DNA of 51,470 bases from a virus: positions 1-51,470 of IMG/VR virus record IMGVR_UViG_3300050821_023966; one strand, 5' to 3'. Shown here in pieces: positions 1,889 through 27,595 of the stretch. Below the pieces are notes generated by a model, which saw nothing but the letters and a program-made list of their open reading frames with translations, was not told where the DNA came from and searched no databases. The translations under genes and the position numbers were made by a program. Numbering within the stretch: position 1 is the stretch's first letter; each line of letters opens with the position of its first letter.

Positions 1889-2133
1889 TGTTTCCTACTA
1901 CCGTCATCAAATGCTGATTGAGTTGCCCTAGTCATTTTTATTAAATCATTTAAATCGATCCTATATCTATCAATAGTATATGACTCAATTGCTCCAAGCA
2001 AATCGCTCAATTCGATCAATTCCATTACACGATTACCTTGCCTATTGGCGTCAATAAATTCCTCATATTCTTCTTGTATTTTGGAAGGAAATCCCAAGAT
2101 TCCCTTATTTATTTTATTTATATGATATCCCAT
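1879..2133 (-). CDS. MazG-like nucleotide pyrophosphohydrolase
   Basis: 84 aa. The segment KIQEEYEEFIDANRQ (residues 18-32) followed by ELSDLLGAIESY (42-53) matches the EExxE...ExxDxx metal-binding helices of the all-alpha NTP pyrophosphatase (MazG/dUTPase-2) superfamily. Members hydrolyse (d)NTPs to NMPs; the phage substrate cannot be told. Lies between the aaRS-like and Cys-rich genes and overlaps both. Confidence 0.72.
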   Translation of the reverse strand: MGYHINKINKGILGFPSKIQEEYEEFIDANRQGNRVMELIELSDLLGAIESYTIDRYRIDLNDLIKMTRATQSAFDDGSRKQCI

Positions 2134-2755
2134 ATGTTTCTAATAATCTACTTAATCTAGGTTCGGCCACACCAGTTCCATAAATCCATTTAAGGAAATT
2201 ACAATGTCTTATACCATAGCTACCGAGTTCTACCCCTCGATACATTAAATCATATGACGGATATAGATATGCATCATTAACATTAACTTCGGCAATCTTT
2301 TCAAATCCATCCCAAATATATACATCATCTTTTTCATCTACACCTGATATCCATGAATCATTAACTTTTGGTAATAAGCAATACTTTCTAAAGAAATCTC
2401 TAGCCGAATGAATAACATTCCTCAACTGTTCCTTACTTACATCATCCGTGATTATTAATTCATTTTTGATAAAATATTTAGTATGCCACACATCAAATGT
2501 TTCATCCCTGAAGCACGGAGTTGTTGTCTGAAACTTCCCTTTTGGTAGAAATCCCTTATTATATAGATATAAAAACGATTGTTCCCCACTTGCCACCAAC
2601 ACCTTGGATTTTTCGGAAATTGAAAAATTAGGAATTCCCTCTGGTTTCGTTATGTCCGAAATATCTTTGGTGACTGTCCAAGGAGACTCGATTCTCGAAA
2701 ATCCACACTTCTCGTAGTATTTAACGGATTCAGCAATTATATTATAATCAATCAT
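2114..2755 (-). CDS. Minimal class II aminoacyl-tRNA-synthetase-like protein
   Basis: 213 aa. All three class II signatures are visible in order: a motif-1-like GFSRIESPWTV (residues ~18-28), motif 2 CFRDE followed by WHTKYFIKNEL (~82-100), and motif 3 YGTGVAEPRLSRLLE (~192-206) with its conserved Arg. No anticodon-binding domain is present. Relatives with only a catalytic core include asparagine synthetase A, HisZ and EpmA, so it may charge something other than tRNA. It overlaps the dCMP deaminase stop (ATGA). The tRNA-rich context makes a tRNA-related role attractive but unproven. Confidence 0.78.
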   Translation of the reverse strand: MIDYNIIAESVKYYEKCGFSRIESPWTVTKDISDITKPEGIPNFSISEKSKVLVASGEQSFLYLYNKGFLPKGKFQTTTPCFRDETFDVWHTKYFIKNELIITDDVSKEQLRNVIHSARDFFRKYCLLPKVNDSWISGVDEKDDVYIWDGFEKIAEVNVNDAYLYPSYDLMYRGVELGSYGIRHCNFLKWIYGTGVAEPRLSRLLETYGISYK

Positions 2756-19697: not shown

Positions 19698-20429
19698 TTA
19701 TCCACAGATTTCAAACCATCTTGATGATAACATTTCAGAATACCATATATGGTATAATCCATAATTCCCCAGACTGGTCGCATCATTAAATTCAACCAAT
19801 GTAGTTTTTCCATCATCGGTGACACCAAAATCCAAAGCATATGCACAAGGAGCCTTAGACCCAAATTCCTTTATGGCTTCCTTGATCACCCCAATATCAG
19901 GAGTTTTTGTCCAGTTTCCACGGTAATGTTTACCTTCCAATATCTCCGTATCTTGAATATAGATTCGAAATTCTGACTCGAAATTAACAATACTGGACAA
20001 ATATACTTCCACGGCATCATCCACATTACCTAACTGAATCCAATCCAATATGGATCGTATTTGCAATCCATTAAATTTCTTCTGGTGAATTGGCTTCATA
20101 AATTTCTTTTGTGGCCATGATTCCCATTCCTTTCTTACCTGACCAATCGTTGATTTCTCGATTGAGCGATTCATAAAACCATACAACTCCTCGGGATAAG
20201 TGTCAATCTTATTATATGTTACTCCAAGTTTTTGTATAATTTTATCAAATATCGTGACGCCAGCGAATACAGGAGTACCACGAGTACAACTCATCCAGAA
20301 AGAAGGATCATCCAATTCTTCTTCCTCGAACTTTATAACATCATAATTGGTGTCAACCCAACCCTTCCAAGCTAAATAAAAATTCGGATTGGGGAAATTA
20401 CCTTTAGTTGTTTTTACGAAAGCGTTCAT
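19698..20429 (-). CDS. ATP-grasp (R2K-type) protein (243 aa)
   Basis: The C-terminal half EFRIYIQDTEILEGKHYRG...APCAYALDFGVTDDGKTTLVEFNDATSLGNYGL contains the ATP-grasp metal triad pattern (D...E-x-N). R2K-clade ATP-grasp proteins are frequent in phages; they are predicted carboxylate-amine ligases modifying proteins or metabolites. Overlaps the next gene by 4 nt. Confidence 0.75.
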   Translation of the reverse strand: MNAFVKTTKGNFPNPNFYLAWKGWVDTNYDVIKFEEEELDDPSFWMSCTRGTPVFAGVTIFDKIIQKLGVTYNKIDTYPEELYGFMNRSIEKSTIGQVRKEWESWPQKKFMKPIHQKKFNGLQIRSILDWIQLGNVDDAVEVYLSSIVNFESEFRIYIQDTEILEGKHYRGNWTKTPDIGVIKEAIKEFGSKAPCAYALDFGVTDDGKTTLVEFNDATSLGNYGLYHIWYSEMLSSRWFEICG

Positions 20430-20695
20430 AACTTATATTTCTCTTGCAATTTTCTGATTTCTCTCATCAAAGCATTCTCTTCTGAAGTAGGCTCATAAAA
20501 TTTATATGGATAGCTATTAGCATATGGATATCTATTAAATACAGCATACTCTTTTAATAATTGAGTTAATGCCGCAAGATAGGCATCTTCATTTTTCATA
20601 ATAAGTTCATATGCATCTTTATATGCACGATCATAAACCTCCTTTTCATTGAATTTGATCTTATTATATTCTTCTTCGGTCAAAGTTATTATCAT
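20426..20695 (-). CDS. Hypothetical protein (89 aa)
   Basis: Charged helical protein (MIITLTEEEYNKIKFNEKEV). Sits between the ATP-grasp and CoaD-CoaE genes with 4-nt overlaps on both sides. Unknown. Confidence 0.65.
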   Translation of the reverse strand: MIITLTEEEYNKIKFNEKEVYDRAYKDAYELIMKNEDAYLAALTQLLKEYAVFNRYPYANSYPYKFYEPTSEENALMREIRKLQEKYKL

Positions 20696-21879
20696 ACAAA
20701 TATTGATTTAAATAAAAATGAATCTTTTAATTTTTCATTCAGTTCGATTGATTTAGCTTCATCTGTTGGAGAATCATGTACTGGATCGCCAACATCATTA
20801 TTAATAACATGTAGTGCTCCATTATTATCCTTTACCATAGCCAATATCATAAATGCTTTTCGTGCATCATTTGACATCTGTGAATTTATTCTTTTCACGG
20901 ATTCCTCTGGTGAATAGCCTCTGGATTTTAATCTAGCTAACACGGTTTCCTTACTACTATCAACAATAATCACATTATTATTACATAGATAAGTCATGTC
21001 ACCATCAACTAACAATGCTCCATTCAACAATATTAATCCAGATTTACCAGCAATTTTCTTACGCATTTCTCGAATCATGACTGGTTTATACAATTCTAAT
21101 AAAGTAGCATTGAATTTAGGATCATTAAATACACGTTCAGCCAATCTACTTTTCACAATTGATGGGAATTGATCAGCATCATTGCCCATTAACATCTTTT
21201 GAACAGTGCTTCTCAATTCCATTACTTCATGATTGTTCTGCCATGAATATTTATCAGAATAAGTGATTTCATTGGATATTACATCAAAATCTACATTTGT
21301 CACTGGTACACCTGAACTCACCCCGAATTTGGATAACAAGTTGGCAATATACGATTTGCCACACCCAATGCCGCCAGTCAATCCAACAATATATTGTTTA
21401 TTCTGGCGAATCTCAAGCATCTGTTTCGTGTATAACGGAACATAATCACGAACATCAGCATTATATTTAATCAACTCTTTGACGGCTGACGAACTAATCT
21501 TTTGATCTTTTGGATCGGAAAATAATACAAACGTGTCAATACCGTTCTCCTGAGACACGGTAACTTCATGTAACATTTTCTCATATTCCGTATCTTGGAT
21601 ATTTCTAATCCCTTTCAAAACAGATGTAATACCATGTTCCCTAGCAAAATCACTTACTAAACTAGTGTCTGGTAAAATGTGAACACTGACACTGTCATTG
21701 TTCGCAAACATCTTATGTATGATCTTAATACGTTCATCTATATTAAACAAATACTTCTTATTAGGATTATTTGCCACCAATATATAAACATGATCAAACG
21801 CTTTTAATGCACGATTGACAATATTAGCATGACCATTGTGAAAACAGTCAAAACTACCAGCATAAATACAGCTTTTCAT
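20692..21879 (-). CDS. Bifunctional CoaD-CoaE fusion (395 aa)
   Basis: Residues 1-~155 are phosphopantetheine adenylyltransferase: GSFDCFHNGHANI (TxGH-type nucleotidyltransferase motif), KGIRNIQDTEYE (family RGLRxxxDFEYE) and ISSSAVKEL. Residues ~160-395 are dephospho-CoA kinase: P-loop GLTGGIGCGKS, DFDVI, and VKRINSQM. Together they would run the last two steps of coenzyme A synthesis, 4'-phosphopantetheine to CoA, in the cytoplasm. The same order occurs in animal CoA synthase; bacteria usually encode separate enzymes. Overlaps the NADAR gene by 4 nt. Confidence 0.88.
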   Translation of the reverse strand: MKSCIYAGSFDCFHNGHANIVNRALKAFDHVYILVANNPNKKYLFNIDERIKIIHKMFANNDSVSVHILPDTSLVSDFAREHGITSVLKGIRNIQDTEYEKMLHEVTVSQENGIDTFVLFSDPKDQKISSSAVKELIKYNADVRDYVPLYTKQMLEIRQNKQYIVGLTGGIGCGKSYIANLLSKFGVSSGVPVTNVDFDVISNEITYSDKYSWQNNHEVMELRSTVQKMLMGNDADQFPSIVKSRLAERVFNDPKFNATLLELYKPVMIREMRKKIAGKSGLILLNGALLVDGDMTYLCNNNVIIVDSSKETVLARLKSRGYSPEESVKRINSQMSNDARKAFMILAMVKDNNGALHVINNDVGDPVHDSPTDEAKSIELNEKLKDSFLFKSIFV

Positions 21880-22406
21880 AATCCATTTTCCCTTAAAATA
21901 TCCCTGATTTCCATTAACACTTTACCTAAATTATTTTCTCCGTACTTCAAATTCACATCAAATCCCCAATATACGTCTTTCCAGTTGTTATATTCCGCCA
22001 GCGATTTGTGACCAGTATCTAACAACATTTCATTCAAATGTCGATTACGATAAAACTTATCAAATACCAACCGTTTCATGATTAGATATTTCCTATCATC
22101 AAATTGATCGGCGGTATATAAAATCTTTTCAGGATTTTTGATATCTTCCTTAATCATTCTCTTGGAGTCTTTGGCAGAACACTTATAATAAGGTGACCTA
22201 AATTCAACTTTCAATTTAGATGCTTGATATGCCGCTTCGGATGATGGATACGTTACACCATCAAACATAACTTCCGCAGGATGAAAATTAGACAAAAATC
22301 GATATTCACCAAAAAATCCACTAATCCTAGTACTATCATGGATGGCATATTCCTTCCATTGTCCAACTTTGTATCCCTCAACTTCATTGTACATTATGTC
22401 GCTCAT
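21876..22406 (-). CDS. NADAR/YbiA-like protein (176 aa)
   Basis: GEYRFLSNFHPAEVMFDGVTYPSSEAAYQASK is the NADAR signature (FLSNF, SxEAxYQ), with WKDVYWGFD...NNLGKVLMEIR completing the fold. NADAR proteins are N-glycosidases on riboflavin intermediates, and some remove ADP-ribose from guanine, reversing DarT-type toxins. Overlaps both neighbours. Confidence 0.85.
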   Translation of the reverse strand: MSDIMYNEVEGYKVGQWKEYAIHDSTRISGFFGEYRFLSNFHPAEVMFDGVTYPSSEAAYQASKLKVEFRSPYYKCSAKDSKRMIKEDIKNPEKILYTADQFDDRKYLIMKRLVFDKFYRNRHLNEMLLDTGHKSLAEYNNWKDVYWGFDVNLKYGENNLGKVLMEIRDILRENGL

Positions 22407-24630: not shown

Positions 24631-25011
24631 TGGTGGACTGAACGGGATTCGAACCCGTGTGTTAGCTAAAACAATACGAATGACTACGTGTGTATTCACT
24701 TTAAGTTTACTCATGATGATGATTAAATGTGTCCAAAACACCATCCGTGAGATTTGTTAAATTTCGATCTATAACCCAAATCATTGTTATATCTCTAGTC
24801 CAATTTTTAACGCAGTTGATAACTATCAGACTTCACTACCAATCTACGGGTAACCTATTAGGCTACAGCAACTTCGTCCATCTCTGGAACAAAGTCATAT
24901 GCTTCAATGTTTTCAGCATTTGATTTTCGAATGAATTTTAAAGTAGCCTTTCATTCAACTACTACACGCCATCCTATACTAATTCTATCTAGTCGATGCC
25001 AGTATCAGCCC
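24631..25011 (-). ncRNA. ssrA: tmRNA (transfer-messenger RNA)
   Basis: 5' end GGGCTGATACTGGCATCGAC matches the conserved tmRNA start (GGGGCTGATTCTGGATTCGAC). It pairs 7 of 7 with the 3' acceptor TCAGTCC, then A and encoded CCA. T arm CGGG-TTCGAAT-CCCG. An internal tag frame (24858-24917) encodes about AENIEAYDFVPEMDEVAVA followed by tandem stops TAA TAG. Length 381 nt is typical. A TTGACT-N16-TATAAT promoter lies just upstream. It would rescue stalled ribosomes and tag the nascent peptide. The exact resume codon (GCT proposed) is uncertain. Confidence 0.92.
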
Positions 25012-26846: not shown

Positions 26847-27323
26847 TCAGTAAAACAATTCAAAAAATTCTTTCTTAAAATATATATTGTCAGGAATATC
26901 AAACGCCCCAAACATTTTACACATTTCTTTGGCTGAATACCCATTCAGCCCAGTCTTATTCTCTTGGGCAACCAAGAATTCCCAAAAAGGATGTATATTG
27001 GCAAATTCATATAATGAACCAATAGATTTAATAATCTCCTCTGGTGTACGACTTCTCCTACACCCAGCATTAGTTACAGTTGGTAACGCATAAGATTTTC
27101 CTATTTCACCCTCTTGAAAACCTTCGCCAATACCTTTTACATTCCATTTACCCTTCCATCCATTAGGTTTATTTGCATAATCAAATGCTCTCCAATGGTT
27201 GCCAACTAAATTAAATGAGGCATATCCAGCCGAACCAGCACCATGGAAACCCTTTAAATTTGATCCAAATACAAAAACTTGGTCAATAGTTAAATTGGTT
27301 ACAAAATCTACGTAAAATTTCAT
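26847..27323 (-). CDS. Macro-domain-like protein (158 aa)
   Basis: QVFVFGSNLKGFHGAGSAGYA near residue 16 resembles the ADP-ribose-binding start of a macro-like phage family (VFGSNLxGxHGxGxA). GIGEGFQEGEIGKSYALPT and a C-terminal helix follow. Members are predicted to bind or hydrolyse ADP-ribose derivatives. Start overlaps the stop of the MoaD-like gene by 1 nt, so both are co-transcribed. Confidence 0.72.
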   Translation of the reverse strand: MKFYVDFVTNLTIDQVFVFGSNLKGFHGAGSAGYASFNLVGNHWRAFDYANKPNGWKGKWNVKGIGEGFQEGEIGKSYALPTVTNAGCRRSRTPEEIIKSIGSLYEFANIHPFWEFLVAQENKTGLNGYSAKEMCKMFGAFDIPDNIYFKKEFFELFY

Positions 27324-27595
27324 TATCCTCCAGCCATTGCTGGTACAATACTAATTTCATCACCGCTAGTTATTTTGGTATCCATATTATTCAAAAATCT
27401 AATATCTTCACCATTTACATAAATGTTAACAAACTTGTTAAAGTTTCCATTAATATCAAAAAGACGATCTTTGGCTAACGGATAAAACGCAAATATATGA
27501 CTTCTCAATCCTTCCACCGAATCCAGTTCCAGTTCTAATGTACTGGCTCCATTCATTACTTTCCTTAATTGTTCTGGAATTGAAATTGTGTTCAT
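27323..27595 (-). CDS. MoaD/ThiS-like ubiquitin-fold sulfur carrier (90 aa)
   Basis: Beta-grasp pattern: FVNIYVNGEDIRFLNNMDTKITSGDEISIVPAMAGG, with the family motif (VNGxxxR, xGDEIxIVPxxxGG) and the diagnostic C-terminal Gly-Gly. MoaD/ThiS relatives are activated by E1-like adenylation and carry sulfur as thiocarboxylate, or are conjugated to proteins. No E1-like partner is visible in the window. First gene of a two-gene operon with the macro-like protein. Confidence 0.85.
   Translation of the reverse strand: MNTISIPEQLRKVMNGASTLELELDSVEGLRSHIFAFYPLAKDRLFDINGNFNKFVNIYVNGEDIRFLNNMDTKITSGDEISIVPAMAGG

What the first reader, a model, noticed from the sequence alone, without database searches (positions are those of the whole stretch)
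20692..21879. CoaD-CoaE fusion in a phage
One 395-aa protein carries both final CoA biosynthesis enzymes, with key motifs of each intact. The same fusion order is known in animal CoA synthase but bacteria keep them separate. It could boost or redirect CoA, or make CoA/NAD-capped RNA precursors.
Basis: partly seen in the sequence, partly recalled or inferred. Interest (0 to 1): 0.72.

Follow-up and report, generated by a model that had tools for sequence, protein, structure and literature searches.

The report
Phage gene fusing two CoA-making enzymes
A giant-phage gene joins the last two enzymes that make coenzyme A into one protein, and relatives of this joined gene are shared by other giant phages, large plasmids and a few bacteria in which it stands in for both normal genes.

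Summary
Window 20692-21879, on the minus strand, is one intact 395-aa ORF with a CoaD domain (phosphopantetheine adenylyltransferase) and a CoaE domain (dephospho-CoA kinase); both pass curated cut-offs and the core catalytic motifs are kept. It is not an assembly artefact: eighteen records, the window included, carry the same fusion, one a 354-kb phage contig at 54% identity. Separate CoaD and CoaE trees both join the 17 non-redundant fusions as one clade (100/99 and 100/100).

The claim that bacteria keep the enzymes separate is too strong. Five of 248 genomes from one spirochaete class, one Aminicenantes MAG and two Pseudomonas megaplasmids carry it. In all five spirochaete genomes the fusion is the only CoaD and only CoaE found, and CoaBC is present, so it very probably does both steps.

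Related phages extend the pathway: a 312-kb phage also encodes CoaB and CoaC, and a 104-kb viral contig has a CoaB-CoaC-CoaDE operon.

Best reading: a bifunctional CoA synthase finishing CoA in infected cells. RNA-cap precursor supply is unlikely, because CoaE consumes dephospho-CoA. In the CoaD tree the cellular copies nest inside viral and plasmid ones, which suggests, but does not prove, virus-to-cell displacement.

The parts
20692..21879 (-). CoaDE: 395-aa fused phosphopantetheine adenylyltransferase / dephospho-CoA kinase
   Evidence: ORF; Pfam and NCBIfam; model with pLDDT 85.3, pTM 0.84
21412..21879 (-). CoaD domain (residues 1-156)
   Evidence: TIGR01510 135.2 bits over cut-off; Foldseek best match E. 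coli CoaD 6b7a, TM 0.91 by target length
20848..21396 (-). CoaE domain (about residues 162-344) with P-loop GGIGCGKS and DFD catalytic motif
   Evidence: PF01121 75.9 bits, TIGR00152 73.0 bits over cut-off; alignment with solved CoaE chains
21876..22406 (-). NADAR-domain gene directly upstream (ATGA overlap); probably the same transcript, not shown to act with CoaDE
   Evidence: PF08719 74.9 bits; junction sequence; not found beside the fusion in L133
22403..22828 (-). DUF3307 membrane-protein gene two genes upstream; its homologue lies about 0.6 kb upstream of the fusion in L133
   Evidence: PF11750 26.0 bits; 49% identity to L133 6925-7368
20426..20695 (-). 89-aa gene of unknown function directly downstream, 4-base overlap
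   Evidence: weak phrog_7626 match
19698..20429 (-). R2K-clade ATP-grasp gene; another R2K gene lies 1.6 kb downstream of the fusion in L151
   Evidence: PF18299 127.3 bits; L151 8752-9588 PF18299 34.7 bits

Best explanation
It is a bifunctional CoA synthase carried by a large phage. The CoaD half joins AMP from ATP to 4'-phosphopantetheine, giving dephospho-CoA. The CoaE half phosphorylates its 3'-hydroxyl, giving CoA. Shown by sequence: both domains, both cores, one ORF, one shared fusion origin with 16 others. Inferred: both halves are active; the pair draws host phosphopantetheine (or that made by phage CoaB/CoaC in some relatives) into CoA during infection, independently of the host's own CoaD and CoaE, and so sustains acetyl-CoA and lipid metabolism in a long infection.
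For: Both domains over curated cut-offs, with matching folds or alignments to solved enzymes. Asp32 and Arg140 of M. tuberculosis CoaE, called catalytic or phosphate-binding in PMC2765170 (passages), correspond to D199 and R330, present in 14 of 14 fusions. The fusion seems to suffice in cells: in 5 of 5 spirochaete-class genomes that carry it, it is the only CoaD over cut-off and the only CoaE, against 11 of 12 and 12 of 12 genomes with separate genes among those searched beside them (p 0.001 and 0.0002); CoaBC is present in 5 of 5. Pathway context in relatives: CoaB-CoaC-CoaDE with 1-base overlaps in L153; CoaB and CoaC near a Gp23 capsid gene in the 312-kb phage of L005; CoaB on the 354-kb contig of L133; adjacent unfused CoaD and CoaE in the 735-kb phage LR756501, L020 and L077-L079. 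PMC11097641 (passages) reports coaD and coaE among abundant viral metabolic genes in snow and cites a study in which CoA-pathway intermediates rose during infection.
Against: No activity is shown. TIGR00152 is only 7 bits over its cut-off; of eight other viral fusions scanned, four fall below it (L133 65.2, L134 52.9, L135 40.3, L006 38.3 bits). Substrate-binding residues named in PMC2765170 vary: Arg36 is N in the window (R in 3 of 14), Arg66 is K, Gln144 is kept in 12 of 14, Pro113 is Ala in 13 of 14. Two later members depart at a core position: L152 has C for one P-loop glycine, L153 has SSG for SSS. The five spirochaete genomes are drafts of unstated completeness and related to one another, and three of the 12 comparison genomes had been seen to have CoaD. 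CoaB or CoaC was found in 3 of 11 viral records with a fusion, not in the window, which is a 51-kb fragment.
Confidence: 0.82

Rival explanations
1. Counter-defence: the enzyme rebuilds CoA after a host defence or the infection itself depletes it, as phage pathways do for NAD.
For: NAD- and ADP-ribose-related genes lie near it or near its partners: NADAR in the window, NAPRT upstream in L134, ADP-ribosylglycohydrolase near CoaB in L163.
Against: No CoA-depleting defence is known to me; the one paper search for it returned none. The neighbours differ from phage to phage. Chromosomal use in spirochaetes needs no defence.
Confidence: 0.1
2. RNA capping: the protein supplies dephospho-CoA or CoA as a 5' cap precursor for phage transcripts.
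For: CoaD makes dephospho-CoA, a known RNA cap (PMC7293010, abstract in the listing).
Against: The fused, conserved CoaE half consumes dephospho-CoA. The family is also the sole CoaD and CoaE candidate of some cells.
Confidence: 0.03
3. The CoaE half has drifted to another small-molecule or nucleotide kinase, and only CoaD works on the CoA pathway.
For: Weak CoaE scores in several members and changes at Arg36, Arg66 and Pro113 equivalents.
Against: In five spirochaete genomes no other CoaE is found. P-loop lysine, catalytic Asp and Arg140 equivalent are invariant in 14 of 14. Ordinary spirochaete CoaE also has Ala-type motifs at the Pro113 site (L119, L120, L124 read by eye).
Confidence: 0.08
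4. The window is a plasmid or bacterial fragment, not a phage.
For: Fusions also sit on Pseudomonas megaplasmids and chromosomes, and no terminase or capsid gene was seen in this fragment.
Against: IMG/VR record; head-maturation-protease match phrog_207; 46 tRNA genes and a tmRNA; nearest fusion on a 354-kb contig with a terminase.
Confidence: 0.08

Closest known systems
Bacterial CoaD (PPAT, TIGR01510) and CoaE (DPCK, TIGR00152 / PF01121)
   Same: Each half matches its bacterial family over the curated cut-off, with core motifs.
   Different: One polypeptide instead of two unlinked genes; CoaE half divergent, with Ala at the Pro113 site.
Animal CoA synthase (COASY, PPAT-DPCK)
   Same: Same domain order and the same two reactions; Pro113 replaced by Ala, as PMC2765170 reports for mammals (passages).
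   Different: No N-terminal targeting/regulatory domain; CoaD half of the bacterial type (TIGR01510 135 bits; NF001985 20 of 104 bits needed); the fusion profile fits bacterial CoaE (99 bits) better than mouse CoA synthase 2f6r (72 bits). Likely convergent.
CoaD + CoaE adjacent genes of huge phages (LR756501 735-kb phage, L020, L077-L079)
   Same: Both enzymes, same order, overlapping genes.
   Different: Unfused; outside the fusion clade in both trees.
Viral coaD and coaE reported as auxiliary metabolic genes (PMC11097641, passages)
   Same: Same two enzymes on viral contigs.
   Different: The passages name them as separate genes; no fusion is mentioned there.
CoaE-UPF0157 fusion of mycobacteria (PMC2765170, passages) and HAD-DPCK of mycoplasmas (PMC8721197, passages)
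   Same: CoaE fused to another domain in bacteria.
   Different: The partner is not CoaD.

Membership tests
CoaD (pantetheine-phosphate adenylyltransferase, TIGR01510) | Score over curated cut-off | tested here: met
   135.2 bits, cut-off 103.3
CoaD (pantetheine-phosphate adenylyltransferase, TIGR01510) | HxGH/TxGH and ISSS motif residues (recalled as catalytic) | tested here: met
   H14-N-G-H17, R92, E100, S129-S131 aligned with E. coli CoaD
CoaE (dephospho-CoA kinase, TIGR00152 / PF01121) | Score over curated cut-off | tested here: met
   73.0 of 65.55 bits; 75.9 of 27 bits
CoaE (dephospho-CoA kinase, TIGR00152 / PF01121) | P-loop, DXD with catalytic Asp32, Arg140 (PMC2765170) | tested here: met
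   GGIGCGKS, D197-F-D199, R330
CoaE (dephospho-CoA kinase, TIGR00152 / PF01121) | Dephospho-CoA contacts Arg36, Arg66, Gln144, Pro113 | tested here: inconclusive
   Window has N, K, Q, A at these sites
Animal CoA synthase (COASY) | PPAT then DPCK in one chain | tested here: met
Animal CoA synthase (COASY) | N-terminal targeting/regulatory domain of about 200 residues (PMC2765170) | tested here: not met
   CoaD match starts at residue 4
Animal CoA synthase (COASY) | Common descent of the fusion | tested here: inconclusive
   Only a profile comparison; animal sequences were not in the trees
Bifunctional CoaDE clade described here | Same clade for both domains, trees built apart | tested here: met
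   17 fusions: CoaD 100/99, CoaE 100/100
Bifunctional CoaDE clade described here | Both enzyme activities | not testable with these tools
   Indirect only: sole CoaD and CoaE in 5 of 5 genomes

The most novel reading that the evidence does not exclude
A CoA-synthase fusion arose and diversified in giant phages and other mobile elements, which in some cases carry the pathway from phosphopantothenate to CoA (CoaB, CoaC, CoaDE). It was then taken up by spirochaetes and Aminicenantes, where in the spirochaetes it displaced both essential cellular genes: a virus-derived enzyme became the cell's only way to finish CoA.
Probability: 0.4. Interest if true: 0.82.

Novelty: new variant of a known kind. 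Interest (0 to 1): 0.64.

Why it matters
CoA is essential and its last steps are usually made by two separate bacterial enzymes. A fused form shared by giant phages, megaplasmids and a few cell lineages gives a bacterial-type counterpart of animal CoA synthase to study. It shows that some jumbo phages carry much of the CoA pathway, and it offers a testable case of an essential cellular gene pair displaced by a gene whose relatives are mostly on mobile elements.

Tried and rejected
First viral scan with the window protein alone gave no relative; alignments were needed. The idea that the CoaE half derives from ordinary spirochaete CoaE, suggested by shared motifs, was rejected: one clade of spirochaete fusions plus ordinary spirochaete genes is rejected for CoaD (p 5e-10) and CoaE (p 0.009). 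One origin for all fusions was rejected for L021 by CoaD (p 0.0002) but not by CoaE (p 0.054). A clade of phage fusions alone was not rejected (p 0.14, 0.36), so the virus-to-cell direction is not proven. A role for the HD-like partner was sought: no Pfam or NCBIfam match, no PDB sequence match, and Foldseek found phosphodiesterase and HD-superfamily folds only at E 0.02 or worse. A comparison with PANK4, a phosphopantetheine phosphatase (abstracts in the listing), is only an idea. The viral structure library gave no clear fused match among its top 50. Megaplasmid papers were listed but not read.

Rows dropped: the CoaD trees used 37 of 106 unfused CoaD ORFs (most of the rest are near-copies, some were left out by choice); the CoaE trees used 21 of 28 unfused CoaE ORFs (six repeats of the same gene and one weak hit were left out). 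The pPL1 fusion (L003) was left out of the trees as 96% identical to L086. Conservation counts cover the first 14 fusions, not L151-L153.

Full report
What is there. The window is a 51,470-base IMG/VR virus record. At 20692-21879 on the minus strand lies one 395-aa ORF. Residues 4-156 match CoaD (TIGR01510, 135.2 bits, cut-off 103.3) and residues 164-354 match CoaE (TIGR00152, 73.0 bits, cut-off 65.55; PF01121 75.9 bits, cut-off 27). Its start overlaps the stop of a NADAR gene and its end overlaps the next gene by 4 bases, so it sits in a tight run of minus-strand genes. The record has 46 tRNA genes and one tmRNA gene and a head-maturation-protease match, which fits a fragment of a large phage. 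No terminase or capsid gene was seen among the window proteins scanned.

Is it real? Yes. An AlphaFold2 model from 11 fusions has pLDDT 85.3 and pTM 0.84; its best PDB matches are CoaD enzymes, and the profile also finds CoaE enzymes by sequence at up to 99 bits. In 14 aligned fusions 37 of 395 window positions are invariant, including P-loop glycines and lysine, the catalytic Asp (D199), the Arg140 equivalent (R330), H17, R92, E100 and the SSS motif. The linker is conserved too (K152, L155, E156 invariant). I chose the 12 core positions after seeing earlier alignments. Other CoaE contacts named in PMC2765170 (passages) vary: Arg36 is N in the window and R in 3 of 14; Pro113 is Ala in 13 of 14. 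Of the three fusions found later, L152 lacks one P-loop glycine and L153 has SSG in place of SSS.

Where else it occurs. Among 50,697 phage records, 69 match by tblastn and none holds 80% of the query in one place. The best two, copies of a 735-kb phage, have CoaD and CoaE as adjacent genes with a 4-base overlap. Among 72,556 plasmid records, 79 match and one holds over 80%: Pseudomonas silesiensis pPL1, 1.17 Mb. Four alignment-guided viral scans gave fusions on nine further viral records of the clade: L004, L005, L006, L133, L134, L135, L151, L152 and L153. A tenth, L021, is probably an independent fusion. L004 is 82-83% identical to the plasmid fusions and may be plasmid DNA. A scan of 84,980 bacterial and archaeal species genomes gave fusions in a Spirochaetales MAG (L084), an Aminicenantes MAG (L085) and the P. 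serbica plasmid (L086). The Spirochaetales copy lies next to two FAD-dependent oxidoreductase-type genes, and the Aminicenantes copy next to uracil-DNA-glycosylase-type and PriA-type genes, so both look chromosomal (gene names by eye). Terminase was found on the contigs of L133, L005 and L006 and not on those of L134, L135, L004, L021, L151, L152 or L153.

Does the fusion work? In the class of the Spirochaetales MAG, 5 of 248 genomes carry a CoaD-CoaE fusion, each with an added C-terminal domain. In those five the fusion is the only CoaD over cut-off and the only CoaE. Of 12 genomes of the class searched with them, 11 have a separate CoaD and 12 a separate CoaE (p 0.001 and 0.0002; with the nine not chosen for a visible CoaD match, p 0.003). 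CoaBC is over cut-off in 5 of 5, against 0 of 3 others searched. These drafts have no stated completeness and the five are related, but the pattern is what a working bifunctional CoA synthase predicts. The P. serbica plasmid copy is additional to chromosomal coaD and coaE. The Aminicenantes MAG has the fusion as its only CoaD but a second, separate CoaE.

Pathway context. Of 11 viral records with a fusion that were searched for CoaBC, three match (three further viral records with adjacent unfused genes had none). The 104-kb contig of L153 has CoaB (PF04127 98.6 bits), CoaC (PF02441 121.4 bits) and CoaDE in a row with 1-base overlaps; its phage nature rests on IMG/VR and phage-type small genes. 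The 312-kb contig of L005 has CoaB (83.3 bits) and CoaC (87.1 bits) near a Gp23 major capsid gene (108.8 bits), and a terminase. The 354-kb contig of L133, the window's closest relative, has CoaB (84.5 bits). Scores against the NCBIfam CoaB, CoaC and CoaBC models stay below their cut-offs. Pantothenate kinase was not searched for.

Phylogeny. Trees of the CoaD and CoaE domains, built apart, each hold the same 17 fusions as one clade (100/99 and 100/100). The window pairs with L133. With unfused CoaD as outgroup, viral branches split first and the plasmid and cellular copies nest within (92/78, 98/88, 99/89, 98/85, 98/89 along the path). The CoaE tree does not resolve this, and a clade of phage fusions alone is not rejected. 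The fusions of spirochaetes do not derive from ordinary spirochaete CoaD (p 5e-10) or CoaE (p 0.009). So these spirochaetes acquired the fusion; the donor being viral is likely but unproven. L021 falls outside in both trees; one origin with the rest is rejected for CoaD (p 0.0002), not for CoaE (p 0.054).

An unknown partner. The C-terminal domain of the spirochaete fusions has homologues as the next gene in L005 and L006, as the gene overlapping the fusion start in L151 (by eye), and fused to CoaD alone in L073/L074. It has H...HD...D residues; an HD-type phosphohydrolase is a fair guess, but no library named it. It was not seen in the window.

Mechanism and rivals. The best-supported reading is a bifunctional CoA synthase finishing CoA in infected cells. 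Why a phage needs it is inference: CoA and acetyl-CoA supply for membranes and energy, free of host control. PMC11097641 (passages) notes viral coaD and coaE and cites a rise in CoA intermediates during infection. Supply of RNA cap precursors is unlikely because CoaE removes dephospho-CoA. Counter-defence is open but without direct evidence.

Novelty. Viral CoaD and CoaE are known (PMC11097641). The fused form in phages, megaplasmids and bacteria was not in any listing of my paper searches on it, which cover only open-licence PMC papers. It is a new variant of a known kind.

Noticed in passing
L152 2268-10329 (298-kb IMG/VR contig): Fifteen short ORFs, otherwise unlike by eye, end in a shared C-terminal peptide of the type R-x-x-(I/L)-L-D-L-stop; synonymous codons and stop codons vary, so the constraint looks peptide-level. 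Purpose unknown.
   Followed up: partly
window 27323-27595 (-): 90-aa ThiS/MoaD-type sulfur-carrier protein ending in Gly-Gly (PF02597 44.5 bits), next to an A1S_2505-family phage gene.
   Followed up: no
window 24631-25011 (-); L135 9679-10113: Phage tmRNA with its own tag in the window, and a phage SmpB two genes downstream of CoaDE in L135 (PF01668 192.9 bits).
   Followed up: no
window 21876-22406 (-): NADAR gene overlapping the start of CoaDE; possibly reversal of nucleic-acid ADP-ribosylation (recalled), not tested.
   Followed up: no
L073 and L074 7977-9113: CoaD fused directly to the HD-like domain that follows CoaDE in spirochaetes.
   Followed up: partly
L021 7959-9053: Second, probably independent CoaD-CoaE fusion on an 82-kb viral contig.
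   Followed up: partly
L006 7479-7997; L134 5361-6578: SpoT/Mesh1-type HD gene directly upstream of CoaDE (PF13328 40.4 bits), and nicotinate phosphoribosyltransferase 1.4 kb upstream (TIGR01514 over cut-off).
   Followed up: no
L163 680-1564 (-): ADP-ribosylglycohydrolase gene near CoaB on the 354-kb contig of the window's closest relative.
   Followed up: no
window 2114-2755 (-): 213-aa histidyl-tRNA-synthetase-like protein, shorter than a full enzyme (phrog_4806), on a record with 46 tRNA genes.
   Followed up: no
one search hits H3, H20, H21: Some records in the phage collection are bacterial assemblies (Salmonella) and should not be counted as phage CoaD or CoaE.
   Followed up: no
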